Notes under the pieces: model-generated
What the model was told of the DNA's origin: nothing
The model's input: the letters and a program-made list of their open reading frames with translations, nothing else
The model's database searches: none
Source: Sulfurospirillum multivorans DSM 12446
Lineage (GTDB): Bacteria > Campylobacterota > Campylobacteria > Campylobacterales > Sulfurospirillaceae
Length of the DNA stretch: 64,000 bases
Assembly: GCF_000568815.1 (NCBI RefSeq)
Contig: NZ_CP007201.1
Location: forward strand, 1,869,654-1,933,653
Direction: 5' to 3'
Made by a program: the position numbers and the translations under genes
In this document: piece by piece, positions 23,007 to 36,091 of the stretch
Numbering within the stretch: position 1 is the first letter of the stretch
Layout: each line of letters begins with the position of its first letter

Positions 23007-23060
23007 TTAATTTAATACCTTTTATTTAAACTGTATTATTTATTTGTTGTTTGTCGATTT

Positions 23061-23127
23061 TACACGTTCAACCCCTTGTGACTACTTAGTGCTTTGACAC
23101 TTTATGAAAGATAGGGGTTTTCGTGTA
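23061..23127. promoter_or_regulatory. Nested stem-loop upstream of the recombinase gene
   Basis: Arms TACACG...AACCCCT and AGGGGTT...CGTGTA pair over 13 bp with a small internal bulge. The 36-nt loop contains a smaller AGTG/CACT hairpin. It lies in the non-coding 203 bp before the IS110-type gene. This is where the guide RNA (bridge RNA) of IS110-group elements is normally located. It could equally be a terminal recombination structure. Confidence 0.45.
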
Positions 23128-23143
23128 CTAACTTTTAATAATA

Positions 23144-23158
23144 ATCTAGTGACTAGAT
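23144..23158. promoter_or_regulatory. Hyphenated palindrome ATCTAGT-G-ACTAGAT
   Basis: Seven-bp perfect arms around one central base, 51 bp before the recombinase ATG. It resembles a dimeric repressor operator. It contains one of the GTGACT words that recur through the element. Confidence 0.4.
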
Positions 23159-23209
23159 CACGTTTACAAGTATAAAGAAGTACACATTATACATAAAAAA
23201 GGATTTACC

Positions 23210-24169
23210 ATGCGTAAAGTTGTTTTTGTTGGTGTAGATGTTGCCAAGGATAAGTTGGATATTTCTTTTACATGTGATGGTCAAAAATATGACTCTCTCA
23301 CGATTCTAAATAATGAGGGTTCAATATTAGGCTTTTTTGATTATTTAAAAACTACTTATAAAAAAAGTGAGTTTTTCGTTGGCTATGAGGCAACCTCCAA
23401 CTATATGCACTTACTTCAAAAGCTTCTTTGCCAACAAGATTTCAAGCAGATTATGATCAATCCTTATATGATGAGTCATTATCTAAAACATTTAAACTCA
23501 CGCACTAAAAGCGATCTCGCAGATAGTAAAGGTATCGCTAAATTCATCCAAACCCTAGATCAAGAAGATTTTAAAACAATCTTCAATCAAAATGATAAAA
23601 CACTCCGTAAATACACATCATCAATTAATCTTCTCCGTAAGCTTGATACTCAATTAAAAAACTTTATCCATTCCCAAAAAGAAAACCCTATTGACTCCTT
23701 AGATTTGTTTCTCGTCTCTTTAAAACTAACAATCAAAGAAACAAAAAAAGGTTTAGAGAAAGAAGCCGAAAATGTTTTAAAACAACTTTTCCCTCACGTT
23801 ATTGAACTTAAAGAACAGATCAAAGGCGTAGGCTACGCGCTCCTTTTAGAGTTAGTTCCTATTTTCCTAAAATCTGAAAATTACACCTTAAAACAACTTC
23901 AAAGCTTTGTAGGTCTTAGCCCTCGTATTTTTCAGAGTGGTACTTCTGTTCATAAGAAAGAATCAATGAGTAAACGTGGTAGCTCTTTAGTCCGAAAACT
24001 TTTATACCTTTCTGCTATGTCTGCCGTTCGTTATAACGACATTATCAAAGAAAAATACAATCGCCTAGTTGAAGGCGGTAAAAATAAAATGGTCGCCTTA
24101 GTTGCATGTATGTCTCACCTCTTCCGTGCCGTTTATGTCAAATTTCACCAAGGATTAGTAAATGTCTAA
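23210..24169 (+). CDS. IS110-family DEDD recombinase, likely the element's integrase
   Basis: The 319-residue protein has an N-terminal RuvC-like domain: Asp10 in VGVDVAKDKLDIS, the YEATSNY glutamate, and the SRTKSDLADSKGIAKF acidic pair. After a helical middle, the C-terminal Transposase_20 domain (about 200-300) carries FVGLSPRIFQSGTSVHKKE with the conserved serine, then SKRGSSLVRKLLYLSAMSA. The ATG lies 7 bp after AAGGA. It is not closely similar to the IS110 transposase at 50358. It leads a co-directional phage-like gene block and overlaps the next frame, so it probably integrates this element rather than being a stray insertion sequence. Confidence 0.88.
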   Translation: MRKVVFVGVDVAKDKLDISFTCDGQKYDSLTILNNEGSILGFFDYLKTTYKKSEFFVGYEATSNYMHLLQKLLCQQDFKQIMINPYMMSHYLKHLNSRTKSDLADSKGIAKFIQTLDQEDFKTIFNQNDKTLRKYTSSINLLRKLDTQLKNFIHSQKENPIDSLDLFLVSLKLTIKETKKGLEKEAENVLKQLFPHVIELKEQIKGVGYALLLELVPIFLKSENYTLKQLQSFVGLSPRIFQSGTSVHKKESMSKRGSSLVRKLLYLSAMSAVRYNDIIKEKYNRLVEGGKNKMVALVACMSHLFRAVYVKFHQGLVNV

Positions 24170-24482
24170 ATGTATCCTTTTCAACCGAATCCCACGCCAA
24201 ATGGCACATTTCTCTCTTTGCCCTGAGAGTTACGATTTTTGTATCCCTCTCGACAAATTGAGGCTTAAATTCGTAGCGATCAATGATTTAAAAGTACGTA
24301 GAGTTGAACTTTTTCTACGTCACCAAGATAGGGATTTACCAATAGGCAAAATTGAACTTTACCATTCAGGAACGATTCATAACTACGAGCACACCTTTGA
24401 AAGTGCCAAATTATTAGCCGAAGAGATTGTCATGCGTTTTAATAGTTTTGAGCCTAACGGTCAACAACAATTTCAATTTTAA
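24162..24482 (+). CDS. Unknown small protein, overlaps recombinase gene
   Basis: The 106-residue soluble protein overlaps the recombinase stop by 8 bp. It contains two cysteines in the first 20 residues and a central KVRRVELFLRHQDRDLPIGKIELYH segment with alternating charged and hydrophobic residues. I do not recognise a family. Its position between the recombinase and the replication genes suggests an early or regulatory role. Confidence 0.6.
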   Translation: MSKCILFNRIPRQMAHFSLCPESYDFCIPLDKLRLKFVAINDLKVRRVELFLRHQDRDLPIGKIELYHSGTIHNYEHTFESAKLLAEEIVMRFNSFEPNGQQQFQF

Positions 24483-24510
24483 AAAGGAGTCAACAATTTT
24501 TAAAGTCATT

Positions 24511-24654
24511 ATGAATAATAACATCATGGACACATGCAGAACGTATTCTCAGGCGCTTAGTAAAGCTAAAAAGATCAAAGCTCTTTTTTGTAAAAACCAT
24601 ACTTTTGAGGTTCTCGTTGAGGATTCCAAAGGTTCCATCTTGGATAGGTTTTAG
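24511..24654 (+). CDS. Unknown very small protein, start uncertain
   Basis: From the ATG at 24511 the product is 47 residues (MNNNIMDTCRTYSQALSKAK... ending KGSILDRF). The best ribosome site, AAAGGAG at 24483-24489, is too far from that ATG. It fits an in-frame ATT at 24496, which would add IFKVI, a plausible beta strand. So the true start may be non-canonical. No family recognised. Confidence 0.5.
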   Translation: MNNNIMDTCRTYSQALSKAKKIKALFCKNHTFEVLVEDSKGSILDRF

Positions 24655-24657
24655 TGT

Positions 24658-24852
24658 ATGAAATTTGAAGTATCAAAAACAGATTATCAAATTTTGGTTT
24701 CTGTTTTAAGCTTATTAAATAGAGGAGGTTACGGCACCACAATTACACGTGAAGATATTATTAGGGAAAGTGGCGTTTCACCATCAATGGTGACAAGAAA
24801 AATACACAATCTATATTTAAAAGAAAAACAACTAAAGGAAAGAATCGTATGA
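24658..24852 (+). CDS. Small winged-helix DNA-binding protein
   Basis: The 64-residue protein looks like a bare helix-turn-helix: TREDIIRESGVSPSMVTRKIHNLYLKEKQL. It starts 3 bp after the previous stop and overlaps the next gene by 4 bp. It is a candidate regulator of the element's early genes or lysogeny, by position only. Confidence 0.65.
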   Translation: MKFEVSKTDYQILVSVLSLLNRGGYGTTITREDIIRESGVSPSMVTRKIHNLYLKEKQLKERIV

Positions 24853-25388
24853 AAACAACAGAAAAACAAGATAGAGATTTTGACAAAAAATTTGACCTTG
24901 AGCATGAGGCTTTTTTGGCTTCAAATGGTAAAACAATCCCAGTAACCATTCACAAACCAGTAAACAATGGAGAAGCAGCCAACAACGTCGGTCTCAAAGA
25001 CATGTCACCAAAAATCGGTGAAGATGAAATGACGATGGATAAATTTAACGAAATGATGGCTCTTTACAATGCAAGAGTAAACGCAAATCAAGTCACTCTC
25101 TCCGCTCAGATTAGCGCACGTGAAGTTCAAAAAGGTAAAGAACGTTCAGATAAAGCAACGGGTGCTCCAATCCTTGACAGTGAAGGCAATCAAACCTTTT
25201 ATCCTAGCCGTTACAAAATCACACTCATTTTTAAAGGTGGCACTCTCGTTCAAAACGTCTCTGAGGCAATGTATAACGAGCTAGAACTCAATAGCACGTA
25301 CATGTTTAAAGGCTCACTAGGCTTTGTTAAAGACTTTGGTCAAGATGTTCTCTCACCTATTTGGCAATCATGGGAGAAAGTAGCGTAA
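24849..25388 (+). CDS. Putative ssDNA-binding protein of the element
   Basis: The 179-residue protein has a charged N-terminus (about 1-60). Its beta-rich core (QVTLSAQISAREVQKGK...RYKITLIFKGGTLVQNVSE...TYMFKGSLGFVKDF) has the strand pattern of an OB fold. It directly precedes the replication initiator and ends at a terminator, the position taken by gene V-type ssDNA-binding proteins in small ssDNA phages. No sequence match is claimed; the call is from context and strand pattern. Confidence 0.5.
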   Translation: MKTTEKQDRDFDKKFDLEHEAFLASNGKTIPVTIHKPVNNGEAANNVGLKDMSPKIGEDEMTMDKFNEMMALYNARVNANQVTLSAQISAREVQKGKERSDKATGAPILDSEGNQTFYPSRYKITLIFKGGTLVQNVSEAMYNELELNSTYMFKGSLGFVKDFGQDVLSPIWQSWEKVA

Positions 25389-25391
25389 TTC

Positions 25392-25414
25392 AGAGGGCTT
25401 AGCGCCCTCTTTTC
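25392..25414 (+). terminator. Rho-independent terminator
   Basis: AGAGGGC and GCCCTCT pair around TTAGC, followed by a T run. It ends the early transcript after the putative ssDNA-binding protein and before the replication gene. Confidence 0.75.
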
Positions 25415-25463
25415 GTTTCTTGAAACTCTAGTGTAGAGCTTCAAAAAGCGAAAACAAACTTCG

Positions 25464-25489
25464 CCCCCACAATGGTTTATCAAGGGGGG
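25464..25489 (+). promoter_or_regulatory. CCCCC/GGGGG stem-loop at the replication gene start
   Basis: Five C residues (25464-25468) face six G residues (25484-25489) across a 15-nt loop, 30 bp before the preferred replication gene ATG. Such G/C islands are rare in this AT-rich element. It may control initiator translation or be part of a replication origin. Confidence 0.45.
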
Positions 25490-25519
25490 TTAGGTGCGAC
25501 AAATATCAAAAGGTCTAAA

Positions 25520-26911
25520 ATGCAAAAACTGGTCAAACTTTGGCAAAATATCGACACCCTAAAATATCACCTCTACCCGTCTCTACTCTTGCAAGGTAAA
25601 GACGTTACAGCCTATAACGCTCTACTCGATACATTACTCTCCACAAAGCTCCAAGCACAAAGCCAAAAAAACGAGAATAAAAGCTTCTCCCAATACCAAC
25701 ACTCCTTTGGCGGTGACTTTTTTCAAATTATGCCCTCTACGGTGCGTGGATTTAGTGTATCCATTAAAAACCACGACATTACAATCCACTTAAAAAAGAT
25801 GGTAACCACAATAGACCCTAACCCATTCTGTAAAGTAGAATTTCGTGCCTCATTCCTCCAACGTTACGGTTATATCTCCGCTATTCAAAAAGTCAACAAG
25901 TTTTTAAGAGATTTTATAATCTCCCACTACACAATCAAGATCAGCGAAATACATTTGCAGTGTGATATACAAGGTCATAACTTCACCGTCTTAGACTTTC
26001 ACCGTACCAAATCAAAAACACGCAATAATCGTTACTACGATGATGAAATAGGCTGTGATAGCTTCTATTATTCAGGACGTAACTTCCAAGGCTTTATGAA
26101 AGGCGGTGGCGATTATTTAATGCGTGTCTACAATAAAACTAAAGAGATTAAAAAGTTTCCAAACAAAGGCTTTATCGAAGGATTATGGCGCACAAACAAA
26201 GATTACGACGAAACAAAAGAAGTCTTTAGAATCGAATTTCAGATCAGAAGAGAAAAGCTTAAAAACATGGTCATTGACGGTCAAATCCTAGACGGCTTTG
26301 AAATAATCCTCAATAACCTTAACAATCTTTGGGGTCGTTGTCTAGAAGATTTTAGCCTCCGTGACATTAGCGATCAAGATACAACCGAAATAATGTTAGG
26401 TTTTAAAACACTTAAAAATGGCACTCAAAAAATGCTCACCACTGACGCAGTACGTCAACGCTTTACACGTAGTGAAGTGCATCCTCTTTGGGCTGTTATT
26501 GGCACGTTTAACGGTCATTATCAAACTGCAAAAATTGACACTTTTGTCAAACCGTTTACAACTGATTTTATTTACGTTCATAACGCATTTAAAGCGTTCC
26601 TTTCCACATCACTTTCACACTTTGGCGATCTTCGTCCAGCTACGATTGAAGAGGCATTAACTAAAGTTCAAGAGTACACACAATCTAAGCATGAAAAGAC
26701 AGTCTTAGAAGACGTTTATAGTAAACGCCTTGATCGTTTCAATAAGCTTGAAATTTACAATCCTGACGATGAGAAACTATACGCAAATAAACACTACTTT
26801 GTTAATCGTGTATTTGACACCATAGATCAAACGTATAACGCTCTGCATGATGTTGGTGTAGGGCAAAATGATGAATTTATTGAAAAAATATCCCAATGTT
26901 ATGGAGCTTAA
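25520..26911 (+). CDS. Phage/plasmid-type replication initiation protein
   Basis: The 463-residue protein is the largest in the element. It has the look of a Rep_trans/RstA-like initiator: an N-terminal domain with NHDITIHLKKMV, then IKISEIHLQCDIQGHNFTVLDFH, a MRVYNKTKEIKK segment where such proteins keep a catalytic Tyr, and EVFRIEFQIRREKLKNM. I prefer ATG 25520 (AAAGG 7 bp upstream) over the ATG at 25472 inside the stem-loop. It is inferred to nick DNA for rolling-circle replication. Confidence 0.7.
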   Translation: MQKLVKLWQNIDTLKYHLYPSLLLQGKDVTAYNALLDTLLSTKLQAQSQKNENKSFSQYQHSFGGDFFQIMPSTVRGFSVSIKNHDITIHLKKMVTTIDPNPFCKVEFRASFLQRYGYISAIQKVNKFLRDFIISHYTIKISEIHLQCDIQGHNFTVLDFHRTKSKTRNNRYYDDEIGCDSFYYSGRNFQGFMKGGGDYLMRVYNKTKEIKKFPNKGFIEGLWRTNKDYDETKEVFRIEFQIRREKLKNMVIDGQILDGFEIILNNLNNLWGRCLEDFSLRDISDQDTTEIMLGFKTLKNGTQKMLTTDAVRQRFTRSEVHPLWAVIGTFNGHYQTAKIDTFVKPFTTDFIYVHNAFKAFLSTSLSHFGDLRPATIEEALTKVQEYTQSKHEKTVLEDVYSKRLDRFNKLEIYNPDDEKLYANKHYFVNRVFDTIDQTYNALHDVGVGQNDEFIEKISQCYGA

Positions 26912-26912
26912 A

Positions 26913-27107
26913 ATGAGTTTTAAAATTGGTTATAAATTAAGTTTTCGAATAAAAGGTTCTGATGATTTTTCTGTTATATATATGTTTCATTATCCTTCTG
27001 ACCCATTGCCTGTTTCTAATTTACTTCATTCTGAATTAGATGAATTAAATTTTGTTTCTGACGAACTCAACAATATATTTTTGAGTATGAATAAATTATC
27101 AAAGTAG
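26913..27107 (+). CDS. Unknown small protein after Rep
   Basis: The 64-residue frame begins at ATG 26913, 6 bp after a GGAG embedded in the last codons of the replication gene, so translation is probably coupled. It has a SFKIGYKLSFRIKG strand-rich start and an acidic C-terminal half. No recognised family. Confidence 0.5.
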   Translation: MSFKIGYKLSFRIKGSDDFSVIYMFHYPSDPLPVSNLLHSELDELNFVSDELNNIFLSMNKLSK

Positions 27108-27116
27108 TTTAAATAA

Positions 27117-27368
27117 ATGAAATGTCTAGTTTGCGGTAAACCTATTATCTTTAACGATAAATGCTATCGTTGCTCCTTTGGACGTCCTAAAACTTACTGT
27201 TCAGATCATTGCAGAGATTTTACAAAATACTTTAACGCTATGGTCAAACACTTAGATCAAATCGAATTAGACGACGAACATAAACGTAAAATAAGAGGCG
27301 ATATTTCTAGGGTAGGTAATTCCCTTAAGTTTCCAACGATTGTTGATTTTAGTACCAAAAGACCTTGA
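27117..27368 (+). CDS. Small zinc-ribbon-like protein
   Basis: The 83-residue protein has MKCLVCGKPI, a CYRC pair and YCSDHC, giving three cysteine pairs that suggest a treble-clef or double zinc site. A helical basic tail follows (DDEHKRKIRGDIS). It could be a nucleic-acid-binding accessory of replication. It ends next to the first 193-bp repeat. Confidence 0.6.
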   Translation: MKCLVCGKPIIFNDKCYRCSFGRPKTYCSDHCRDFTKYFNAMVKHLDQIELDDEHKRKIRGDISRVGNSLKFPTIVDFSTKRP

Positions 27369-27376
27369 GAAGAAAT

Positions 27377-27569
27377 GGAGCATCTATGATTTTTCTAACA
27401 AAACAAAAAAATCGGTTAAAACTCTCTTTTTACCGTTGGCTACGTAACTATCTTTTAGTAAGTTACTTTCAAAATGTAGGTGCAAATATCGAACGATTTT
27501 GCTTGATCTGTGATCTCTCTGATGAGATCGAATTTTTAGAAGGAAGGATTTAAATAATGATTTTAATTG
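27377..27569 (+). repeat. 193-bp direct repeat, copy A (left of the methyltransferase gene)
   Basis: Copy A matches 28378-28570 almost base for base, at a constant offset of 1001 bp. It runs from a GGAGCAT ribosome site through a complete 55-residue frame and into the first 13 bases of the next gene. After those 13 bases copy A diverges, leaving a dead 9-codon stub of the M15 peptidase start. Confidence 0.95.
27386..27553 (+). CDS. 55-residue repeat-encoded protein, copy A
   Basis: This encodes a basic helical protein (MIFLTKQKNRLKLSFYRWLR...) ending CLICDLSDEIEFLEGRI, with GGAG before the ATG. It is nearly identical to copy B at 28387. The N-terminal half is basic and aromatic; the C-terminal half is acidic with two cysteines. 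Function unknown. Confidence 0.6.
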   Translation: MIFLTKQKNRLKLSFYRWLRNYLLVSYFQNVGANIERFCLICDLSDEIEFLEGRI

Positions 27570-27582
27570 TAGGGTGTGCACA

Positions 27583-28386
27583 ATGAAACTAGTTTTATCT
27601 CTATGCTCAGGTATCGGCTTACTAGATCGTGCATTCAAAGAAGCAGGCTTCTGCGTCGTAAGTTCAGGTGACATTATTCTCGGTAAACATTATGACATCC
27701 GTAACTTTACAGGTGTTAAAGGTAAATTTGATGGAGTGATCGGCGGTCCACCATGCCCTGACTTTTCACCCTTAAAACGTGACCGCCCTGTATTGGAAGA
27801 GTCTTACGGTTTTGAAATGCTTATGGAATATAAAAGAATCGTTTTAGAGTGTGACCCCTTCTGGTTTCTTTTAGAAAATGTTTCAGGTGTACCTAACGTT
27901 AAAATAGATGGATACTCACATCAAAGATTAGACATTAATCAATCTTGGTATGAAAACGTGACTCGGCTGCGCCACATTCAATTCGGTCACAAAGATAATA
28001 AATACCTACAAATTGAAAGAAAAATTGTGACTGATCGATCACATAAATTACAATCATGTGCTTTAGCAAATGATAGCCGTTCTTTTAGAGAGCTTTGTAG
28101 ATTGCAAGGCTTAGAAGATGACTTCGACTTAAAAAGTTTTAATGTGCAAGGTAAAAAACGTGCAGTTGGAAACGGTGTTCCACTTTGTATTGGTCGAGCA
28201 CTTGCAAAGGCTGTGACTGATCTGGAAGAAATAAGTGTGACGCAACAGGATAATAAAATCTGTGCATGTGGTTGTGGTCGTATTGTGACCCATCGAGGTG
28301 GTTATTATGACTATTCATGCCGTAAACGAGCCCAAAGAAATAGAAATAAATTTGCTGTGACTGATCAACAACAAATAGGAGCATAA
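27583..28386 (+). CDS. C5-cytosine DNA methyltransferase (orphan)
   Basis: The 267-residue enzyme has motif I (LSLCSGIGLLDRAF), motif IV with catalytic Cys58 in GGPPCPDFS, motif VI ENV at 98-100, a motif VIII-like FRELCRLQGLEDDF and motif X VGNGVPLCIG. The target-recognition region is short. A C-terminal addition holds CACGCG and a CRKRAQRNRNK basic tail. No restriction enzyme is adjacent, so it probably protects the element's DNA. It sits between two 193-bp direct repeats, which marks it as an inserted cassette. ATG 27583 is chosen because it aligns with motif I. Confidence 0.88.
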   Translation: MKLVLSLCSGIGLLDRAFKEAGFCVVSSGDIILGKHYDIRNFTGVKGKFDGVIGGPPCPDFSPLKRDRPVLEESYGFEMLMEYKRIVLECDPFWFLLENVSGVPNVKIDGYSHQRLDINQSWYENVTRLRHIQFGHKDNKYLQIERKIVTDRSHKLQSCALANDSRSFRELCRLQGLEDDFDLKSFNVQGKKRAVGNGVPLCIGRALAKAVTDLEEISVTQQDNKICACGCGRIVTHRGGYYDYSCRKRAQRNRNKFAVTDQQQIGA

Positions 28387-28570
28387 ATGACTTACCTAAC
28401 AAAACAAAAAAATCGGTTAAAGCTTTCTTTTTACCGTTGGCTACGTAACTACCTCTTAATTAGTTACTTTCAAAATGTAGGTGCAAATATCGAACGATTT
28501 TGCTTGATCTGTGATCTCTCTGATGAGATCGAATTTTTAGAAGGAAGGATTTAAATAATGATTTTAATTG
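28378..28570 (+). repeat. 193-bp direct repeat, copy B (right of the methyltransferase gene)
   Basis: Copy B differs from copy A at only a handful of positions, mostly near the ATG and in the middle of the small frame. Copy B is joined to the intact M15 peptidase gene. The methyltransferase gene plus one repeat forms a 1001-bp unit. Confidence 0.95.
28387..28554 (+). CDS. 55-residue repeat-encoded protein, copy B
   Basis: The ATG directly abuts the methyltransferase stop codon. The product (MTYLTKQKNRLKLSFYRWLR...) differs from copy A at three positions. Both copies keep open frames and ribosome sites, so both may be translated. Confidence 0.6.
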   Translation: MTYLTKQKNRLKLSFYRWLRNYLLISYFQNVGANIERFCLICDLSDEIEFLEGRI

Positions 28571-28935
28571 ATTGGTCAAAATTAAAAAATTTCAAAGAAA
28601 GTGAATTTACATGTAATTGCGGTTGTGGTCTAAATAATATCAATGATGATGTTGTTCTAATGTTGGATACTGCTCGTGAGTGGGCACATATTCCTTTTAA
28701 AATTAATAGCGCTTGTCGCTGTGAAAAACATAACAAAATGGTGGGAGGTGTAACAGATAGTGCACATTGTAAAGGATTGGCGGTGGATATTTCCGCTCGT
28801 GATGATAGGTCTCGATTTATTATCGTTTCGGCTCTTATGAAAGTAGGTTTCACTCGTGTTTTAATTTATGACACGTTTGTTCATGTTGATATGGATTTGT
28901 CAAAACCAAATCCTATTTTAAAATTAATGAAATAA
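28558..28935 (+). CDS. M15-family peptidoglycan peptidase (endolysin candidate)
   Basis: The 125-residue protein shows the zinc-peptidase ligands His70 and Asp77 (SAHCKGLAVDIS) and His109 (FVHVDMD), with an N-terminal CNCGCG typical of phage M15_3 enzymes. It would cut the peptide stems of peptidoglycan. There is no signal peptide, so release would need a holin or another route. The next small gene is a candidate helper. Its presence argues for a lytic virus rather than a secreted filamentous one. Confidence 0.85.
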   Translation: MILIDWSKLKNFKESEFTCNCGCGLNNINDDVVLMLDTAREWAHIPFKINSACRCEKHNKMVGGVTDSAHCKGLAVDISARDDRSRFIIVSALMKVGFTRVLIYDTFVHVDMDLSKPNPILKLMK

Positions 28936-29276: not shown

Positions 29277-29840
29277 ATGTCATATTTAATTAGGGTGCAA
29301 TATTTTTCTAAGGATACGGTTTCCCCTATCGATAATCAAACGCATTTTGCTGGTTCTTTAGGTTGTTTTGTTCAAGATGGTTCCAATATGGAAAGTCCAA
29401 TTTTTGTTTTTAGTGCTGATTTTATGAATGAAGATGGTTCATTGAAATATACTTTTATTAATACTTTCACTATTTCTGATGTAAATTATACTCTTAGTGT
29501 TGTATTTGATGATGCTTATGGATTTCAATGTGTTTTTGATTATCCTCATTATTTTCTTGTTGACAACTCAGCTCTTGTTTTTCTTGCTGGTCTGTTAGGT
29601 TCTAGTGGTGGCACAACCGATACCTCTCTCTTAACTTCTCTCAACGGAAATTTTGGAAGTTATCCTGATGGCGCTCAGGTTGTTGTGCAAGGTCTTACAA
29701 CAAGAACCTATACAGTCCAATCAAGCTCTTTAGGTTGGGATTCACCATCAACGGGTAGTTTGATCATTACATACCGTTTAAAGGACGCTGACGATAACTT
29801 CCTAGAAGCTCCTCATGTCCTTTTAACTTTAAAGGCTTAG
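29277..29840 (+). CDS. Beta-rich structural candidate
   Basis: The 187-residue protein has few charges and many aromatic and beta-branched residues (YLIRVQYFSKDTVSPIDNQT, YTLSVVFDDAYGFQCVFDYP). A TSLNGNFGSYPDGAQVVVQG segment and strands follow to the end. It could be a capsid, spike or fibre protein. Codons end mostly in T, unlike the host. No family recognised. Confidence 0.5.
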   Translation: MSYLIRVQYFSKDTVSPIDNQTHFAGSLGCFVQDGSNMESPIFVFSADFMNEDGSLKYTFINTFTISDVNYTLSVVFDDAYGFQCVFDYPHYFLVDNSALVFLAGLLGSSGGTTDTSLLTSLNGNFGSYPDGAQVVVQGLTTRTYTVQSSSLGWDSPSTGSLIITYRLKDADDNFLEAPHVLLTLKA

Positions 29841-29842
29841 TC

Positions 29843-30754
29843 ATGTCTAATGCTTATGCAAAAGATGTACTTTTTAATGGTAATACTGGCGGTGGCATGG
29901 TGGCTGGTGGGGGTTCTTCCTCCTCCGCTAATAATGCTTCTTATCAGGGGCGTTATACTGCCTCTAACAACGTTTCCTATGCTCGTTCGTCTTCTGTTTC
30001 GCCTTTGACGTCTTCTGAAACTACTGTTGTTTCTCAATCAGGTACTGGCGTTGGTACTGTGAAACAATATTCCTCTACTAATATTACTAATTTTAATGTT
30101 GCTGATTATGTTAAAAATTTAACTAATGCTAGTGGTGGGTCGTCTTACACGTATTACACTGATGAACAAAAAGCACAAATGTCTGCACCTGATCGTTTGC
30201 TTATTGAACAATACGAAGCAATGCAAAAAGTTTCAGAAGATCAAAATAAAAATAAACAAGCTGTAAAAGATCAAACTAAAGAAGTGGTTAACGGTATTAA
30301 TTACCAACAAGGCGATACTCTTCCCTCCGTTCTCTCTCAAAACGCTAAAGCATTAACGCAAGCTATTAACGCTTTAACGACTACGTTTACAGATCAGTTC
30401 ACTTTGCTAAATAACTACATGATGGGAGGTCTCATTTATCAACAACAATTCTTAGATATTAAAACGGCTGAAAGTGGTCTAAAAATTGAATCTATGGAGT
30501 ACAACAAAACTCAACAAACGGTGTATGATCTTGATGGTAATGCTCTTGGTCAAGCTACACCTAGAGACCTTGGTGTACAAAAAGATGCTGTTGTCGGTAT
30601 TGATCACACGGATAAAATCAATTTTGAGATACCTGATGAGCTTGAATCTGATTTGTCTTCTGATGATCTTGATATTTCTACTATTTTGGGTTATGATGAT
30701 GGTGCTGATATTTTTAAAGAATTTTATACTCGTATGGGAGGTACTGGTCTATGA
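29843..30754 (+). CDS. Serine/glycine-rich virion protein candidate
   Basis: The 303-residue protein has a low-complexity N-terminus (NGNTGGGMVAGGGSSSSANN and Ser/Thr-rich text to about residue 75). A helical middle (about 105-180) contains TDEQKAQMSAPDRLLIEQYEAMQKV, and the tail is acidic. There is no signal peptide. The layout suggests a minor virion or assembly protein. It is separated from the previous gene by 2 bp and overlaps the next by 4 bp. Confidence 0.5.
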   Translation: MSNAYAKDVLFNGNTGGGMVAGGGSSSSANNASYQGRYTASNNVSYARSSSVSPLTSSETTVVSQSGTGVGTVKQYSSTNITNFNVADYVKNLTNASGGSSYTYYTDEQKAQMSAPDRLLIEQYEAMQKVSEDQNKNKQAVKDQTKEVVNGINYQQGDTLPSVLSQNAKALTQAINALTTTFTDQFTLLNNYMMGGLIYQQQFLDIKTAESGLKIESMEYNKTQQTVYDLDGNALGQATPRDLGVQKDAVVGIDHTDKINFEIPDELESDLSSDDLDISTILGYDDGADIFKEFYTRMGGTGL

Positions 30755-30873
30755 TTAGTAATAAACAAAAAAATAAGTTTTATTCTTTTCTTGATTGGAT
30801 TGGTGTTATTATTGTTGTTGTTGGCTTGGCTTATATTCTTTTTTCTAAGGGTGGTTTTTTAGGTGGTTTTTAG
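30751..30873 (+). CDS. 40-residue single-pass membrane protein
   Basis: MISNKQKNKFYSFLDWIGVI... has a basic N-terminus and one hydrophobic helix (about residues 14-32), ending in Gly/Phe. The ATG overlaps the upstream stop as ATGA. It is a candidate for a virion membrane protein, a small coat protein or a holin. Confidence 0.55.
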   Translation: MISNKQKNKFYSFLDWIGVIIVVVGLAYILFSKGGFLGGF

Positions 30874-30919
30874 CCTATAAAATAATTTCACATAAGTTTT
30901 ATTTGTCAAGGATTGTAAG

Positions 30920-31132
30920 ATGTTGCAAAAGATTAAAGAGCAGTTTTTTGGTTGGTTATATGTTTTTGTCTTTTTTTCTTTGTTGTTTACAGTTTTTTTT
31001 GGTCGCGATATTTATGATTATTATTTTGCACCAAACCCAGTTCAGCAATATGTTGATTCTTATGAAAAGGCTTTTGGGAAAAAAATGCAAGTTCCTGAGC
31101 TTTTAAAACAATACGTTAAAGATAAGCAATAA
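30920..31132 (+). CDS. 70-residue membrane protein
   Basis: One strong membrane helix (about residues 10-27, WLYVFVFFSLLFTVFF) is followed by a soluble C-terminus (YDYYFAPNPVQQYVDSYEKAF). There is no cleavable signal. It ends this transcription unit at a clear terminator. Candidate virion membrane or assembly protein; family unknown. Confidence 0.6.
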   Translation: MLQKIKEQFFGWLYVFVFFSLLFTVFFGRDIYDYYFAPNPVQQYVDSYEKAFGKKMQVPELLKQYVKDKQ

Positions 31133-31159
31133 GCCATTAATTTGGCTTTTTGTTTTTTC
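31131..31159 (+). terminator. Rho-independent terminator
   Basis: AAGCC and GGCTT flank an AT-rich loop, followed by a long T run. The first arm includes the stop codon region of the 70-residue membrane protein gene. Confidence 0.7.
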
Positions 31160-31161
31160 TT

Positions 31162-31228
31162 AAAATTTACACCCACCCTCTTTAACCTCCCTATTTTTCA
31201 TACTTCCCAATTTGTGTTAGTCAATTTT
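31162..31228 (+). promoter_or_regulatory. Bipartite element-specific regulatory motif, copy 1
   Basis: AAAATTTACACCCACCC (31162-31178) and TTAGTCAATTTT (31217-31228) start 55 bp apart. The same two words at exactly the same spacing occur at 34905-34971. This copy lies 42 bp before the ATG at 31271. It is probably a promoter or activator site shared by two late operons. Confidence 0.6.
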
Positions 31229-31270
31229 CCAACTTAATTCTTAACATTCTCGAAAAAAAGAGGTGTTAAA

Positions 31271-32023
31271 ATGGGTCAAGTTAAAAACATTGGTCAAAAT
31301 ACAGCTGAGGAGTTTTTTGAAACAATTCTTTACATGACTGCGTATCAAGAAACGCGCACGATTATGCAAGAATATACCAAGGATATTGATAGTCCTGTTT
31401 TAAAAGAGGCTATCGAATCTGCTATGTCTGTAGCTGTTTTTGGTGCTGTTTTTTTTGCTGTACAAAAACAAGAACAAATGATTGCTTGGATTTTTGATAA
31501 AGCTGAAGTTCTTATGCTTGTTCTTATTGGTAAAGCGCGCAATTTATTATCTAAAGTTAAAAAATTTAAAGGTACTAAGCTTTATCGTTTGCTTAATTTT
31601 ATGCAAGGTAATAATTCTGAAAATTTAATGACTGCTCAAATTGTTGCTACTCATCAGGGGTTTAAGTCTAATGCTCGTGTTCATTCTAAATATGCTACTA
31701 ATCCTATTGGTGCATATCAAATGCAAACCGATACTAAAAATTCGTTGTATCAACGCGAAAACCTCCATATGAATTTCGGCAATGCTATGGCCTCACGCTA
31801 CAATCAAACTCTCCTATTCAAACTCTTCACAAAGTCATTCACTGCTCAGGATGAACTATTGATTAAAAAAATCCTAGGCAGAGAAACGGGCGCCGCTGTA
31901 TCTATCGAAGATTTAAACCAAGTCGGTGATTTCCTTTTTGTCAAAGACACCAACGGCAAAGTAACTGGGCTTTCTGAGGCGTTTTTACAGCTTGTTAATA
32001 CTCTTGGTTATGTGAATAAGTAA
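31271..32023 (+). CDS. Unknown 250-residue structural candidate
   Basis: The N-terminal half is helical with hydrophobic runs (SAMSVAVFGAVFFAVQ, VLMLVLIGKARNLL). The C-terminal half is soluble, with DELLIKKILGRETGAAVSIEDLNQVGDFLF. Codons are T-ending up to about 31740 and C-ending after that, an abrupt change inside the frame. It is the first gene after the bipartite motif. Possibly a capsid or membrane-associated protein; unrecognised. Confidence 0.5.
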   Translation: MGQVKNIGQNTAEEFFETILYMTAYQETRTIMQEYTKDIDSPVLKEAIESAMSVAVFGAVFFAVQKQEQMIAWIFDKAEVLMLVLIGKARNLLSKVKKFKGTKLYRLLNFMQGNNSENLMTAQIVATHQGFKSNARVHSKYATNPIGAYQMQTDTKNSLYQRENLHMNFGNAMASRYNQTLLFKLFTKSFTAQDELLIKKILGRETGAAVSIEDLNQVGDFLFVKDTNGKVTGLSEAFLQLVNTLGYVNK

Positions 32024-32033
32024 GGATATTTCC

Positions 32034-32903
32034 ATGAATTACGTTGAAACTATTTCACATGAGAGTGAATTTGTTGGTTTTTTTAATGGCATTCCTCTTT
32101 ATGGTAATGCTAGTCAAGGTTATTATTTTCCTCTTTTTACTATTTATCCTTTTGTAGATTCTGAGCAGGGTTCACAATTTATGGTGTCTGGTATTCGTTC
32201 CGACCCTTATGATGTGGTCAAAAATTATCATGTTATTGAATTAAATGGCTACGCATGTATGTATAATTTTCGTGGAGTTCAGAGTGTTACTATTTATTCA
32301 AATGATTCAAGGGGTTTTTTTTCAAGTTTTATGAATCTTGAAGATGGTCTTTTTTATGCTGATAGAAATTCTCAAATTTTAGCGGATGATTTTTCATATC
32401 CTTTTTTAACTCTTGAAGAGGCTTGTAATTATTTTTATTATAATGCTCCTTTTGTTCAATATAATAGTATTAAACAAAAGGTTTCTCGTTCTGATATTTA
32501 TTCTGTTAGTGATAGTGTTTCTGCTTACGACATTCATTACAATCATTTTTTATATGTTGGCATTCTTTGTTCGCCAATATGTTGTTACCCTAATTTCATC
32601 CCAATCGTCCAATCCCTTGGCGGTATCCCCGTGACAGATCAACTACAAAACCTAAAAATTATTTGCCAGCTTTTAGGAATTGACATAAATACAACTTTGA
32701 GTGATTGTGATGCAATGAAAGAATATTTAAAGCGTATCGTAACCGTTCTCGGAGGTACTTCCTCTATTGAACCAAACGAAAACCTAAAATCAATCTGCTA
32801 TCTTCTTGGCGTTGATACGGCTGAAAATGGCTTAAGTGATTGTGCATTAAGCAAAGATTATGTGAAACGAAATGGAATAATGTTAGGAGCTGAAAATGCC
32901 TAA
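32034..32903 (+). CDS. Unknown protein with beta-rich body and duplicated C-terminal module
   Basis: The 289-residue protein has an aromatic, beta-rich body (about 1-185, many Tyr/Phe). Two related helical units follow near the end: LKIICQLLGIDINTTLSDCD...YLKRIVTVLGG and LKSICYLLGVDTAENGLSDC...YVKRNGIMLGA. The coding style changes from T-ending to C-ending at about 32580, just before the repeats. It may be a capsid or spike protein carrying an exchangeable tail. Confidence 0.5.
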   Translation: MNYVETISHESEFVGFFNGIPLYGNASQGYYFPLFTIYPFVDSEQGSQFMVSGIRSDPYDVVKNYHVIELNGYACMYNFRGVQSVTIYSNDSRGFFSSFMNLEDGLFYADRNSQILADDFSYPFLTLEEACNYFYYNAPFVQYNSIKQKVSRSDIYSVSDSVSAYDIHYNHFLYVGILCSPICCYPNFIPIVQSLGGIPVTDQLQNLKIICQLLGIDINTTLSDCDAMKEYLKRIVTVLGGTSSIEPNENLKSICYLLGVDTAENGLSDCALSKDYVKRNGIMLGAENA

Positions 32904-33258
32904 ATATAGAGTACAACTTAAACAAGGTTCACGAACTATCGTTAACCACGTTGAGGCTAGCAGTTCATCTGCTGTCTTAGCTTTTTTTGAGTCTGTTTCC
33001 ACTATGCAAGTAAGCGAAATTTTAAAAGTTGATATGAAAAATGATACCATTCCCCCTGCGGACGATTTTGGCTACTACCCCGTCTTCAAAGGCATTATGA
33101 AAACAGATACACGCCGAGCTAAACAGATCATAATTAATAATGTAAAACTCGGAAAAAATGAGCAGGAAATAGCCATAGCATGTAAAACATTTTTAGAAAT
33201 TGAAGGCACAAAAGTTGACAGTCTTTACTGTGCACTTTTTAAACAAGATCGAAGTTAG
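32896..33258 (+). CDS. Unknown 120-residue protein
   Basis: A basic N-terminus (MPKYRVQLKQGSRTIVNHVEA) is followed by a beta-alpha pattern and a helical tail with GKNEQEIAIACKTFLEIEG. It overlaps the previous gene by 8 bp. It is the last gene before the long non-coding region. Function unknown. Confidence 0.5.
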   Translation: MPKYRVQLKQGSRTIVNHVEASSSSAVLAFFESVSTMQVSEILKVDMKNDTIPPADDFGYYPVFKGIMKTDTRRAKQIIINNVKLGKNEQEIAIACKTFLEIEGTKVDSLYCALFKQDRS

Positions 33259-33732
33259 CAGTTTTGAATATTCCATTTTTCCTCAAAAACCACTTTCAAA
33301 ACTCCTCCCTAATCAGCGCGTTTTCGCTCTCCTCTGCGCTCTTTCCTGCACCGCAGGTATAGGCATATATATGGTAACGTGGGACTGTGTCCCATCTTAC
33401 CCTATACAGAATGCCGTAGATAAAAGTGCGCTTAGCGCCCTCGCTCCCTTGTCAAGCTTCAACACCGATTCGAACGCCAAAAACCCTATAAAAACCTAAA
33501 AATTTTCGAAACTCCACCCTAAGCAGGCCGCTCTCTGTTCTTCCACCCCAACAAAGGTTAAGTAACAAAAACAGAGGAGCGTGAGCTCCCTCTCTTTCTG
33601 TACCAAATCTCCTTAAGTATAAAATTGATTTTCTGTGACTTTGCAGCAAAGAAAAGTGTGACGCAACAGGATAGAAAAAACGTGACTTATCTGTCACAAA
33701 AAAGAAGGTGAGAATGTGCAAAGCACACTCTC
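33259..33732. other. Hairpin-rich non-coding region, candidate replication origin/packaging site
   Basis: No credible gene is seen here. Stem-loops visible: CCTGC-ACC-GCAGG (33345-33357); a compound hairpin at 33373-33401 with TGGGAC/GTCCCA over a TGT loop and GGTAA/TTACC below, extended by outer GTATAGG/CCTATAC; GCGC-TTA-GCGC (about 33428); GGAGC-GTGA-GCTCC (about 33577); and GTGAC-TTATCT-GTCAC (33682-33697). The density of structure at the junction of two gene blocks resembles the intergenic region of ssDNA phages. Confidence 0.55.
33654..33673 (+). repeat. 20-bp exact repeat shared with the methyltransferase gene
   Basis: AAGTGTGACGCAACAGGATA here is identical to 28233-28252 inside the methyltransferase gene. 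Both copies follow a CTGTGACT word by 21-22 bp. Confidence 0.85.
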
Positions 33733-33930
33733 TTAAAACGCAGTATTCAAAGAAGTATTAATCTCATTCTCTTCTTGCTCAGAAACCAAAATCATATCAT
33801 CATCAACACTCTTAAAATAACCAAACGCTGTATCAATATCATTCTCCCGTTTGATTAAAACAACACCATGCCCAACCCCATTAACTGCGATTCGATAATC
33901 CTGTTCATCTTTCATTTTGTACATGTACAT
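33733..33930 (-). CDS. Unknown 65-residue protein, minus-strand block
   Basis: Starts MYMYKMKDEQDYRIAVNGVG and is acidic toward the end, with a short beta pattern (VVLIKRENDIDTAFGYFKS). It follows the receptor-binding candidate by 4 bp on the same strand. An ATG five residues in is an alternative start. Confidence 0.45.
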   Translation of the reverse strand: MYMYKMKDEQDYRIAVNGVGHGVVLIKRENDIDTAFGYFKSVDDDMILVSEQEENEINTSLNTAF

Positions 33931-33934
33931 CTTT

Positions 33935-34534
33935 TTATCCTTTTGTGTAGTTTAAAACAATTTTTGCGTTATATGTTGAGTAGTTGTAGAAATTTACTAT
34001 TCTTATTGTTTCATTTACTATTGCAATATTTATGTTCGTAGCTCCGTTTTGATTTATTCCAACATAAGGTAATGGCATTATTGTTTTTTCTTTTAGTGCA
34101 TAACTTCCCGATGCATTAATCCAATAATTGTAGTTTATTTCATAGTTTGGGATTGTAATGTTTTTTGTCGTCGCATTTGGCAACGCACCACAATCAACTT
34201 CAATTCCAAAAACCTCTTTACCCCCTCTTAAATATCCACACTTATATTTACTACTCGTTACGTCATAAATATTTTGTTTAGCGCTCAATAATTCGAGTGT
34301 TTCCGCTTGCGAATAAACACTAAAATCCTCCAAATTGATCGTAACGGTGCTTAACGGTTTCCATTCAATCGGTTCAACACTTTTTAACGAATAATACGAA
34401 AACGGACCATTGACCAAACAGATCAATTTTAAATCTTCCAAACTTGGAATAAACGCGTCTCTTTCCACGATCGTCTCAAACTCATAATTGTGAATTTGAT
34501 GTATGTTCCCTAATCCTACGTTTTTATGTTGCAT
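33935..34534 (-). CDS. Receptor-binding/tail-fibre-like protein
   Basis: The 199-residue protein ends in a beta-rich domain: VDCGALPNATTKNITIPNYEINYNYWINASG...TNINIAIVNETIRIVNF...YNAKIVLNYTKG. The motif order GALPN-TTK, then a Trp-containing strand, then a final Y-x-A-x-V-x-x-x-YTK is common at the tips of phage tail-fibre and baseplate proteins. The N-terminal half (ERDAFIPSLEDLKLICLVNG) resembles virion-attachment segments. No tail genes are present, so it is probably a vertex spike. It lies in a three-gene block opposite in direction to the rest of the element. Confidence 0.6.
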   Translation of the reverse strand: MQHKNVGLGNIHQIHNYEFETIVERDAFIPSLEDLKLICLVNGPFSYYSLKSVEPIEWKPLSTVTINLEDFSVYSQAETLELLSAKQNIYDVTSSKYKCGYLRGGKEVFGIEVDCGALPNATTKNITIPNYEINYNYWINASGSYALKEKTIMPLPYVGINQNGATNINIAIVNETIRIVNFYNYSTYNAKIVLNYTKG

Positions 34535-34827
34535 TACTTAATCCTTATCACTTGTTTATTATCAAACAATATTTCATTGCCTACATGTAATATTGTCGAT
34601 GGTTCAATAACTTTCTTTTGAAAAGTCATACCGCTTATGTCCGCATTGTCAAACACATCTTTAAGCATGTTTGAATAAGTTGTCATATATTCCAAATAAC
34701 CTATCACATGCTCATTCAAACATGTTAGACCGCTCTGATCTCCTAATTCCTCCATCCTCTTCCCACATTTAAAACATTTCAGTTCACTTACCTCAATAAC
34801 ATCATAAGCAACCTCAAAAAATGTCAT
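34534..34827 (-). CDS. Zinc-ribbon-containing unknown protein
   Basis: From ATG 34827 (GAGGAC upstream) the product is 97 residues. It has ELKCFKCGKRMEELG and a later Cys-Leu-Asn-Glu-His, enough for one zinc site, and a C-terminal strand-rich part. The frame extends upstream to a GTG at 34851. It leads the minus-strand block and overlaps the receptor-binding candidate by one base. Confidence 0.5.
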   Translation of the reverse strand: MTFFEVAYDVIEVSELKCFKCGKRMEELGDQSGLTCLNEHVIGYLEYMTTYSNMLKDVFDNADISGMTFQKKVIEPSTILHVGNEILFDNKQVIRIK

Positions 34828-34904
34828 AAAGTCCTCACGATCAATAATCACATTTGACCCCTTTCTCTACTTCTTTGATGTTGAAATGATATTTTGTTCA
34901 TTGC

Positions 34905-34971
34905 AAAATTTACACCCACCCCTTCCAAATGTCCTGTTTTTGGTATTTCAAAAGTATGTTTAGTCAATTTT
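34905..34971 (+). promoter_or_regulatory. Bipartite element-specific regulatory motif, copy 2
   Basis: AAAATTTACACCCACCC (34905-34921) and TTAGTCAATTTT (34960-34971) start 55 bp apart, as at 31162. The middle is only partly conserved (TCCT, a T run and TA match). It lies 62 bp before the ATG at 35034. Confidence 0.6.
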
Positions 34972-35033
34972 CAATTTCTTTTTTAAACTTCTCTTCATGT
35001 TTTGCAAAACAAAAAACACAAAAGGATTCGTGA

Positions 35034-35393
35034 ATGATTAAACAGATTATTGGCGGTGTTACTAAAAAGACCGTCTATGCTGAGATGTCCGCAGGTGATC
35101 TCACTGCCGTTCAAGCGTTAATGGAAGGTAAGCTAGAGATTTATGATAAAAAGTTTGAGGGCGGTACGGCTTCCGTTATGCCTGCTCAAATGAACTCTAT
35201 CCGTTGTTCATGCGGTAAAAAAATTAGCAAAGGTGTCTATCAAACTGCTAGTTTTAGTGTTCCTCACATTACTCAGGGTAAATCTTTTGCTGATGCAAAA
35301 GCTCTTATCATTGGTGCGTTTGACGCTGGATACGACATTGACACGAAATGTGATTACAGTAACCTTATCGGTTCAAAAAGTGAGGTAGCATAA
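35034..35393 (+). CDS. Unknown 119-residue protein, first of a three-gene late operon
   Basis: MIKQIIGGVTKKTVYAEMSA... with a central RCSCGKKI pair and a YDIDTKCDYSN end, giving three cysteines. Mixed alpha/beta; no signal or membrane helix. The stop overlaps the next start by 1 bp. It may be a structural or assembly protein. Not recognised. Confidence 0.5.
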   Translation: MIKQIIGGVTKKTVYAEMSAGDLTAVQALMEGKLEIYDKKFEGGTASVMPAQMNSIRCSCGKKISKGVYQTASFSVPHITQGKSFADAKALIIGAFDAGYDIDTKCDYSNLIGSKSEVA

Positions 35394-35737
35394 TGGCAAA
35401 GACTCTTGTATTGAATACTCTTGGTAGTACAACAAAAGGTTTTTCTCTTCCTGCTTCTGATACTGCGGCAAGTGCATTTTGTGCGGCTATGTTGGATGGT
35501 GAATACGTAGGTTATACAAAACAAAGTGAGAGCGGTTCTGATTCAGGAATTACAGCATATCATGATGTAAGTATTCAAATTGCTTCTTCAACGGGTTCAA
35601 AAACATACTTTGGCTTTTTAGCTAAAGCAGGTGTCACCGATGTTGAGATTCAAACGGCTCTCGTTGGTAAAACAATCAACGGTGTTAAGGCTGATACGGT
35701 TTTCGTTACCATGCGTGAAGTTGCGGTAGGTGTCTAA
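35393..35737 (+). CDS. Unknown 114-residue beta-rich protein, coat candidate
   Basis: MAKTLVLNTLGSTTKGFSLP... is small, low in charge and rich in Ala, Ser, Thr, Gly and Val, with alternating strands (VSIQIASSTGSKTYFGFLA, ADTVFVTMREVAV). Abundant virion proteins often look like this. It lies between two overlapping genes (1-bp overlaps), which implies coordinated expression. No family recognised. Confidence 0.5.
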   Translation: MAKTLVLNTLGSTTKGFSLPASDTAASAFCAAMLDGEYVGYTKQSESGSDSGITAYHDVSIQIASSTGSKTYFGFLAKAGVTDVEIQTALVGKTINGVKADTVFVTMREVAVGV

Positions 35738-35970
35738 TGTCAGTTTTTGAGTGGATTTCTTTAGCTCTTGCCATTTTTGGCTATGTGATCGCTTTTGGTT
35801 CTGTTATTCTCTCTCTTAGAGAACGAGTAAAACGTAATGAGGAAGATATTCGAGAATTAAAAGAAGCACAAAAAGATGCTACAGAAAAACACGAGCTTTT
35901 AGCAGTTCTGAACACTAAGCTTGACATGGTTATCAAACAACTTGACGCTAAAACAAGGTTAGAGGCTTAA
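35737..35970 (+). CDS. Single-pass membrane protein with coiled coil
   Basis: The 77-residue protein has one N-terminal helix (about residues 5-27, ISLALAIFGYVIAFGSVILSL). A charged heptad-like coiled coil follows (RERVKRNEEDIRELKEAQKDATEKHELLAVLNTKLD). The topology resembles small phage holin-associated or spanin-like proteins, but could also be a virion membrane anchor. Its end overlaps a GC-rich stem-loop. Confidence 0.55.
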   Translation: MSVFEWISLALAIFGYVIAFGSVILSLRERVKRNEEDIRELKEAQKDATEKHELLAVLNTKLDMVIKQLDAKTRLEA

Positions 35971-35978
35971 ACGCCTCT
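35961..35978 (+). terminator. Stem-loop at the end of the last element operon
   Basis: AGAGGC and GCCTCT flank a TTAAAC loop across the stop codon of the coiled-coil gene. No T run follows directly. Between here and the MITE at 36092 I see only AT-rich DNA and no gene. Confidence 0.5.
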
Positions 35979-36091
35979 TCCCTCTAAAAACTTCAAAAAA
36001 ATCACAATCTTTCAAAAAAACCGCTTTACCTCTTGACAAATCATCATATAATCTTTCATGGACTGACCTACAATTTGAATAATTTTGCATG

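What the first reader, a model, noticed from the sequence alone, without database searches (positions are those of the whole stretch)
23040..36090. A small prophage of unrecognised type
The element combines an IS110-type recombinase, a putative ssDNA-binding protein, a Rep-like initiator, an M15 endolysin candidate, several single-pass membrane proteins, beta-rich small structural candidates and a spike-like protein. It has no Zot ATPase (expected in inoviruses), no Microviridae-type capsid protein that I recognise, and no terminase or tail. The set resembles what a membrane-containing or tailless ssDNA phage might carry, as in Finnlakeviridae or corticovirus-like groups, but I see no recognisable homology.
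Basis: partly seen in the sequence, partly recalled or inferred. Interest (0 to 1): 0.85.

Follow-up and report, generated by a model that had tools for sequence, protein, structure and literature searches.

The report
Phage-like element integrated by bridge RNA
A small phage-like element with no recognised capsid genes sits in this bacterial chromosome, and a short RNA it appears to encode carries the address of the exact spot where it inserted, while close relatives carry different addresses that fit their own spots.

Summary
The element is real and bounded to the base: 22987-36054 (13,068 bp). A near-identical partner lies elsewhere in the same genome, and Rep homologues occur in 24 of 397 sampled genomes of the phylum. 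It carries a Rep, an M15 endolysin and a conserved block of unknown proteins; no Zot, terminase or tail was found and no capsid fold was recognised, so the virion type stays open.

The IS110-type recombinase is a relative of IS621. The 223 nt before its gene appear to encode a bridge RNA with a target-binding and a donor-binding loop. Its two target guides (GTGACTACT, ATGAAAG) equal the two halves of this element's own insertion site, which is unoccupied in relatives. The second copy has other guides that match its own site at the folD start. Over 32 insertions, own guide-target matches beat every one of 100,000 permutations; four copies show no convincing match. Two copies in one S. diekertiae genome differ at 10 of 957 recombinase bases but at 4 of 9 left-guide bases.

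Best reading: a lysis-type, probably ssDNA, temperate phage lineage with RNA-guided, naturally retargeted lysogeny. Activity and virion are untested.

The parts
22973..22986 (+). left half of the host target plus CT core (..GTGACTA-CT), host side of the left junction
   Evidence: ends; unoccupied site in relatives
22987..23209 (+). left non-coding end (LE), holds the predicted bridge RNA; begins TGTAAGAT (donor right half and -10-like box)
23078..23086 (+). left target guide GTGACTACT, identical to the left target half
   Evidence: 9/9
23104..23110 (+). right target guide ATGAAAG, reverse complement of CT plus the right target half
   Evidence: 7/7
23137..23147 (+). left donor guide AATAATAATCT (matches ..ATAATCT at the right end)
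   Evidence: sequence; conserved in 10 aligned ends
23165..23170 (+). right donor guide TACAAG (reverse complement of CTTGTA at the left end)
   Evidence: sequence
23210..24169 (+). IS110-type recombinase, 319 aa, the element's integrase
   Evidence: ISCro4 and IS621 are the nearest solved relatives; co-occurs with the element in the genus
24658..24852 (+). small conserved ORF, 64 aa (HTH-like by eye)
   Evidence: family found in 19 of 27 loci
24849..25388 (+). putative ssDNA-binding protein, 179 aa
   Evidence: family in 25 of 27 loci; function not supported by Pfam or PDB profiles
25472..26911 (+). replication initiator (Rep), 479 aa
   Evidence: 27 of 27 loci (the loci were chosen by it); weak PHROG and Rep_trans similarity
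27574..28386 (+). cytosine DNA methyltransferase, optional gene between direct repeats
   Evidence: PF00145 E 1.9e-17; repeats
28558..28935 (+). M15 endolysin candidate, 125 aa
   Evidence: slot holds a GH24 lysozyme in L055, L057, L059
28946..29266 (+). conserved 106-aa protein next to the endolysin (holin role is a guess)
   Evidence: 15 of 27 loci
29277..29840 (+). variable 187-aa protein
   Evidence: 11 of 27 loci
29843..30754 (+). 303-aa protein, low-complexity N-terminus, conserved C-terminal part
   Evidence: 19 of 27 loci
30920..31132 (+). small protein with a hydrophobic stretch, 70 aa
   Evidence: sequence
31271..32023 (+). conserved 250-aa protein with a hydrophobic helix, role unknown
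   Evidence: 25 of 27 loci; poor model
32034..32903 (+). variable 289-aa protein with two C-terminal repeats
   Evidence: 8 of 27 loci; repeats
32896..33258 (+). conserved 120-aa protein, doubled or fused in some relatives
   Evidence: 25 of 27 loci
33733..34851 (-). three ORFs on the opposite strand, optional
35034..35393 (+). 119-aa protein, paralogue of the next
   Evidence: 17 of 27 loci; alignment
35393..35737 (+). 114-aa protein, two beta-beta-alpha-beta repeats in the model
   Evidence: 22 of 27 loci; model
35737..35970 (+). 77-aa protein, hydrophobic start and coiled coil
   Evidence: 10 of 27 loci
36033..36054 (+). right end (RE): TTGACA -35-like box, donor left half, CT core at 36053-36054
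36055..36061 (+). right half of the host target (TTCATGG), host side

Best explanation
A temperate, phage-like element of Campylobacterota (13.07 kb here) that enters, and by inference leaves, the chromosome by IS110 bridge-RNA recombination. Supported by sequence: (1) the ends are CT cores with donor halves; (2) joining the right end to the left end, as in a circle, sets a -35 box against a -10-like box in front of the RNA; (3) the donor loop of the RNA matches the element's own ends and its target loop matches both halves of the host site; (4) insertion is exact at the core, mostly at the 5' ends of host genes; (5) target guides differ between copies and each fits its own site. Inferred: the circle replicates by the rolling-circle mode, probably with ssDNA, through Rep and the neighbouring putative SSB; particles of unknown architecture are built from the 29277-35970 block; the M15 enzyme lyses the cell; guide variants are selected because only a variant that matches a site can lysogenise.
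For: Recombinase aligns over residues 4-313 with ISCro4 and IS621 transposases. Unoccupied sites run on across the junction in 10 of 10 relatives examined for copy 1 and 9 of 9 for copy 2. Left guide 9/9 in 9 of 13 copies, right guide 7/7 in 9 of 11; permutations reaching the observed sum: 0 of 100,000 left, 3 of 100,000 right. 32 copies: own sum 237, best permutation 210; in a fixed slot 21 of 32 own pairs reach 7/8 against 39 of 992 cross pairs. RNA structure: 10 of 26 pairs with changes on both sides, 0 of 500 shuffles; donor guides nearly constant, target guides the most variable. Same recombinase clade in 7 of 24 genomes of the genus, the same 7 that have Rep. Lysis slot holds M15 or GH24 lysozyme. 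No Zot, Walker A, terminase or tail.
Against: No transcript, circle, particle or plaque is shown. Folded alone, the window RNA is no more stable than shuffles (z -0.37), and Rfam has no match above gathering score. Four of 32 copies (L126, L130, L132, L133) have no convincing left guide, and without a fixed slot 248 of 992 cross pairs also reach 7/8. The right-guide permutation test is weaker because L042 and L043 share a right guide. The structure counted was derived from the same alignment. No capsid protein is identified. The Sulfurospirillum junction promoter is only 10 of 12 matches.
Confidence: 0.85

Rival explanations
1. The phage does not carry the recombinase: it integrates beside resident IS110 elements that supply enzyme and site.
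For: The two copies in this genome share an almost identical body but recombinase genes of 79.5% identity; a tandem copy (L053/L073) has only the last 56 codons of the recombinase.
Against: In the genus this recombinase clade is found only in the 7 genomes with the phage, 0 of the other 17. The mobile unit shown by unoccupied sites includes the recombinase. The donor sequence at the far right end matches the RNA at the left end. Two distant relatives carry a tyrosine integrase instead.
Confidence: 0.05
2. A Zot-less filamentous phage that is extruded without lysis, with the M15 enzyme used for entry or wall passage.
For: Small circular-replicon type gene set with Rep and a putative SSB, several short hydrophobic proteins, size about 10-13 kb, integration of Nf filamentous phages by an IS110-type enzyme with CT flanks (PMC4471427, passages).
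Against: The pI/Zot ATPase, the one gene shared by known inoviruses (PMC6813254, passages), is absent and no Walker A motif is present. The lysis slot holds M15 or GH24 lysozyme, i.e. two unrelated wall enzymes.
Confidence: 0.2
3. Not a virus with its own capsid but a satellite or other non-viral mobile element that borrows particles or moves by other means.
For: No capsid gene recognised. This genome has a Zot gene elsewhere, at 1,148,388.
Against: 13 of 23 carrier genomes have no Zot hit. The block 29843-31271-32896-35034-35393 is conserved in order across four host families, which is more than most satellites would need.
Confidence: 0.15
4. The guide-target matches are chance in AT-rich DNA.
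For: Without a fixed slot, cross pairs often reach 7/8 (248 of 992).
Against: Permutation and fixed-slot controls; matches on both sides at a fixed spacing; donor guides constant where target guides vary.
Confidence: 0.01

Closest known systems
IS621 and other IS110-group insertion sequences with bridge RNA (Durrant et al. 2024, PMC11208160, passages seen)
   Same: Recombinase family, 5' non-coding end with two-loop RNA, left and right guides for target and donor, CT core, promoter expected across the joined ends.
   Different: The cargo is an 11.9-kb phage-like genome with replication and lysis genes, and closely related copies carry different target guides.
Neisseria filamentous phages Nf with pivNM/irg (described in PMC4471427, passages seen)
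   Same: A phage integrated by its own IS110-type (Piv) enzyme, flanked by CT.
   Different: Nf is filamentous and targets the dRS3 repeat; this element has no Zot, has an endolysin, and its sites differ from copy to copy. Whether Nf uses a bridge RNA was not examined here.
Inoviridae and relatives (Roux et al. 2019, PMC6813254, passages seen)
   Same: Small genome, rolling-circle type Rep, short hydrophobic proteins.
   Different: No pI/Zot ATPase; endolysin present.
Finnlakeviridae and other tailless icosahedral ssDNA phages (recalled, no call)
   Same: Small, tailless, lytic, Rep-bearing gene set by analogy.
   Different: No jelly-roll protein was found among the two proteins modelled; no sequence match to known phage proteins.

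Membership tests
IS110-group bridge-RNA recombination system | Recombinase with DEDD and Transposase_20 domains related to IS621 | tested here: met
   PF01548 and PF02371 above cut-off; aligned over residues 4-313 with IS621 and ISCro4
IS110-group bridge-RNA recombination system | 5' non-coding end folding into a target-binding and a donor-binding loop | tested here: met
   Consensus structure with compensatory changes; single-sequence folding alone is not significant
IS110-group bridge-RNA recombination system | Guides match target halves and donor ends, CT core | tested here: met
   4 of 32 copies without a convincing left guide; Sulfurimonas-type and some sister-family copies have TT at the core
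IS110-group bridge-RNA recombination system | RNA is transcribed, binds the recombinase and directs recombination | not testable with these tools
   Needs RNA sequencing and a recombination assay
Inoviridae / Tubulavirales | pI/Zot morphogenesis ATPase | tested here: not met
   PF05707 absent from the element loci in 23 carrier genomes; no Walker A motif in 26 element ORFs
Inoviridae / Tubulavirales | Non-lytic extrusion of filaments | not testable with these tools
   Endolysin gene argues against it
Finnlakeviridae, Corticoviridae and similar | Jelly-roll major capsid protein | tested here: inconclusive
   35393 model is not a jelly roll; 31271 model too poor; 29277, 29843, 32034, 32896 not modelled
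Microviridae | Microviridae-type capsid protein | tested here: inconclusive
   No Pfam or PHROG hit of that kind in 20 proteins
Tailed phages (Caudoviricetes) | Terminase, portal, tail genes | tested here: not met
   No such hit above chance among 20 proteins
Temperate phage in general | Virions released on induction | not testable with these tools
   Needs culture

The most novel reading that the evidence does not exclude
A new virus lineage of Campylobacterota in which lysogeny is RNA-guided and the guide is an evolving trait: members with nearly the same genome carry different target guides, so the virus moves to new chromosomal addresses by changing about 15 nt of RNA rather than its integrase. 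Its virion is of an undescribed type built from the 31271, 32896 and 35034/35393 families.
Probability: 0.6. Interest if true: 0.92.

Novelty: new variant of a known kind. Interest (0 to 1): 0.82.

Why it matters
Phage integrases are normally tied to one or a few sites by protein-DNA contacts. Here the site appears to be chosen by a short RNA, and nature has retargeted it many times (31 distinct target 8-mers in 32 copies), which gives a natural set of matched guides and targets for bridge recombination of cargo over 10 kb. It also exposes a phage-like lineage in four host families that the phage collection searched does not match and whose particle architecture is open.

Tried and rejected
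Jelly-roll capsid: 35393 modelled well but as two beta-beta-alpha-beta repeats. Foldseek against BFVD gave no match with E <= 0.001; VIA-align against PDB chains gave best Z 5.0 over 44 residues of ribosomal proteins, i.e. nothing to go by. The 31271 model was too poor to search.

IMG/VR: the window Rep and the Sulfurospirillum/Sulfurimonas/distant-group profile found nothing. The 31271 profile and the sister-family Rep profile found the same 84-kb contig, in which the element lies among other genes. The Rep profile of the tyrosine-integrase group found 4 loci: one partial inverted copy and three contigs with only weak Rep similarity.

Rfam on the element: two chance-level matches below gathering score. 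PDB profile searches with Rep, SSB, 35393 and 32896, and phmmer with the M15 protein, gave nothing credible. Pfam over 18 members of the 35034/35393 family and PHROGs over 9 members of 31271 gave only isolated weak hits. I suspected from memory a link to the Firmicutes DUF1659/DUF2922 proteins; no scan supported it.

Single-sequence folding of the window RNA is not better than shuffles; the support comes from the alignment. The 9-mer score that includes the core understates sister-family copies; I changed to the 8 bases before the core, a choice made after seeing data. In two copies (L102, L066) the best unrestricted 8-mer match lies away from the guide position, where it is 7/8 by eye. The fixed-slot test takes its slot from medians of found positions and misses subtypes with other spacing (L127, L128, L066-L068). 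Dropped before the 32-copy count: L119 (flank too short) and L123 (contig end). The gene-start observation has no random-position control.
Full report
WHAT IS THERE. The window lies at 1,869,654-1,933,653 of a single-contig 3,175,729-bp genome; from memory its size fits Sulfurospirillum multivorans, which no call names. A second copy lies near 1.05 Mb of the same genome (L041). From 24174 to the right end the two have the same length (11,881 bp) and differ at 4 positions, all between 35947 and 35996, yet their recombinase regions are only 79.5% identical. A third, broken copy (left end plus the first 53 codons of the recombinase) lies near 264 kb.

DISTRIBUTION. Rep homologues occur in 8 of 44 genomes of the family and 24 of 397 genomes drawn from the phylum, in four families. 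The 16 named loci are from Sulfurospirillum, Sulfurimonas, Sulfuricurvum and MAGs labelled only at family or order level. Across 27 loci fetched by Rep, HMMs built from the window genes find SSB in 25, 31271 in 25, 32896 in 25, 35393 in 22 and 29843 in 19. The window Rep and 31271 have no match in 50,697 phage records. A sister-family Rep has none in the phage or the plasmid collection.

ENDS AND UNOCCUPIED SITES. The nearest solved relatives of the recombinase are the ISCro4 and IS621 transposases. In the seven relatives whose contig reaches it, the similarity stops at 36054-36056; the left end is set by a shared TTGTA(A/T)GAT. In relatives without the element the bases left of 22987 run straight into those right of 36054..GTGACTACT|TTCATGG.. 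This holds in 10 of 10 relatives examined out of 18 others with a match; five have the exact 9-mer, L081-L083 and L088 read GTAACTACT, and L085 has CC at the core. For copy 2 the site is ..AAACATCCT|TTTAG.., continuous in 9 of 9 examined, with one base missing at the core in L098.

THE GUIDES. The left non-coding end holds, at a constant spacing, a copy of the left target half and the reverse complement of the right half. In the window these are GTGACTACT at 23078 and ATGAAAG at 23104; in copy 2, AAACATCCT and CTAAAAG. In the first set the left guide is 9/9 in 9 of 13 copies, 8/9 in 2 and 7/9 in 2; the right guide is 7/7 in 9 of 11, the other two are 6/7, one of them cut by a contig end. Of 100,000 permutations none reached the observed left sum and 3 reached the right sum, where L042 and L043 share a right guide. 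In 32 insertions from three host groups (31 distinct targets) the own sum was 237 and the best permutation 210, but without a fixed slot cross pairs reach 7/8 in 248 of 992. In a fixed slot 21 of 32 own pairs reach 7/8 against 39 of 992 cross pairs, again with 0 of 100,000 permutations. Four copies (L126, L130, L132, L133) show no convincing left guide. The broken third copy of this genome fits too: its guide reads ATTATACCT, as does its flank (by eye).

THE RNA. An alignment of ten left ends folds into two stem-loops with large internal loops. Ten of 26 pairs have changes on both sides, which no shuffle of 500 reaches; sliding the partners by one base leaves 1-4 such pairs. The structure came from the same alignment, which favours it. 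The donor guides are nearly constant (mean pairwise difference 0.02 and 0.05) and the left target guide is the most variable of the eight regions measured (0.59). This is the layout described for IS621 (PMC11208160, passages). Joining right end to left end gives TTGAC(A/T)-17-TATGAT in the four sister-family copies scored, and 9-10 of 12 consensus matches in the seven Sulfurospirillum copies. One tandem Sulfurimonas prophage (L073) contains a naturally joined end, read as TTGACA-17-TATAAT.

RETARGETING. The two copies in S. diekertiae (L042, L043) differ at 10 of 957 bases of the recombinase gene but at 4 of 9 of the left guide, and each guide fits its own site. In the sister family, recombinases 91-98% identical to that of L118 (L120, L121, L122, L124) and L118 itself have four different 8-mer targets in five copies, each matched 8/8. 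No mechanism of guide change is shown; selection of variants that can integrate would be enough.

WHERE IT INSERTS. In 17 of 22 copies an ORF of 80 aa or more has an ATG between -24 and +108 nt of the left junction, facing away from the element (counted; no random control). Copy 1 interrupts the start of a methylaspartate (glutamate) mutase S-subunit gene. In the unoccupied sequence the ATG lies on the right-hand side of the site; the element supplies an in-frame ATG 20 nt inside its left end. Copy 2 lies at the folD start. In L047 the junction is at the first position of the RNase P RNA model (match cut by the contig end, 96.5 bits, just under gathering).

IS THE RECOMBINASE THE PHAGE'S OWN? 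Within the genus this recombinase clade occurs in 7 of 24 genomes, the same 7 that carry Rep. In two distant relatives (L055, L059) a tyrosine integrase is present. I conclude that it is the element's integrase, and that middle and ends are exchanged between elements.

IS IT A PHAGE? The slot of the M15 endolysin holds a GH24 phage lysozyme in L055, L057 and L059. No Zot, Walker A motif, terminase or tail was found. Rep has weak similarity to Rep_trans, which suggests rolling-circle replication. The capsid is unknown; the conserved pair 35034/35393 is a candidate particle protein by conservation only. A lysis-type ssDNA phage is my preferred reading; a filamentous phage, a satellite or a non-viral element is not excluded.

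NOVELTY. Phages with an IS110-type enzyme and CT flanks are known: Neisseria Nf (PMC4471427, passages). Bridge RNAs are known in IS110 elements (PMC11208160). I found no paper that joins bridge RNA to a phage's integration in the library held (searches: listings seen; passages of PMC11208160, PMC12045711, PMC4471427 and PMC6813254 seen, none read whole). The library lacks most subscription journals.

Noticed in passing
27377-27569 and 28378-28570: A 193-bp direct repeat (94% identical) flanks the cytosine methyltransferase gene. L044, L045 and L047 lack the methyltransferase, and L047 keeps a single repeat, so this looks like a cassette gained or lost through the repeats.
   Followed up: partly
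about 50442-51347 (minus strand): A different IS110-family gene (27% identity to the element's) with two further relatives at 1,975,013 and 1,977,923 of the genome; probably ordinary insertion sequences.
   Followed up: no
genome position 1,148,388 (outside the window): A Zot-domain gene (E 2.6e-8) points to a separate, ordinary inovirus-type prophage in the same genome.
   Followed up: no
23006 and 22587-23006 (minus strand): The element's left end supplies a start codon in frame with the glutamate mutase S gene, so the gene would begin MSKRILQ instead of MK. Outward ATGs also occur near the left end of many relatives.
   Followed up: partly
L053 / L073 (Sulfurimonas sp. STE_9): Tandem prophages 9.07 kb apart; the second copy has a joined right-left end followed by only the last 56 codons of the recombinase.
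   Followed up: partly
L057 4-20 kb: Two facing, near-identical copies of a distant relative lie head to head.
   Followed up: no
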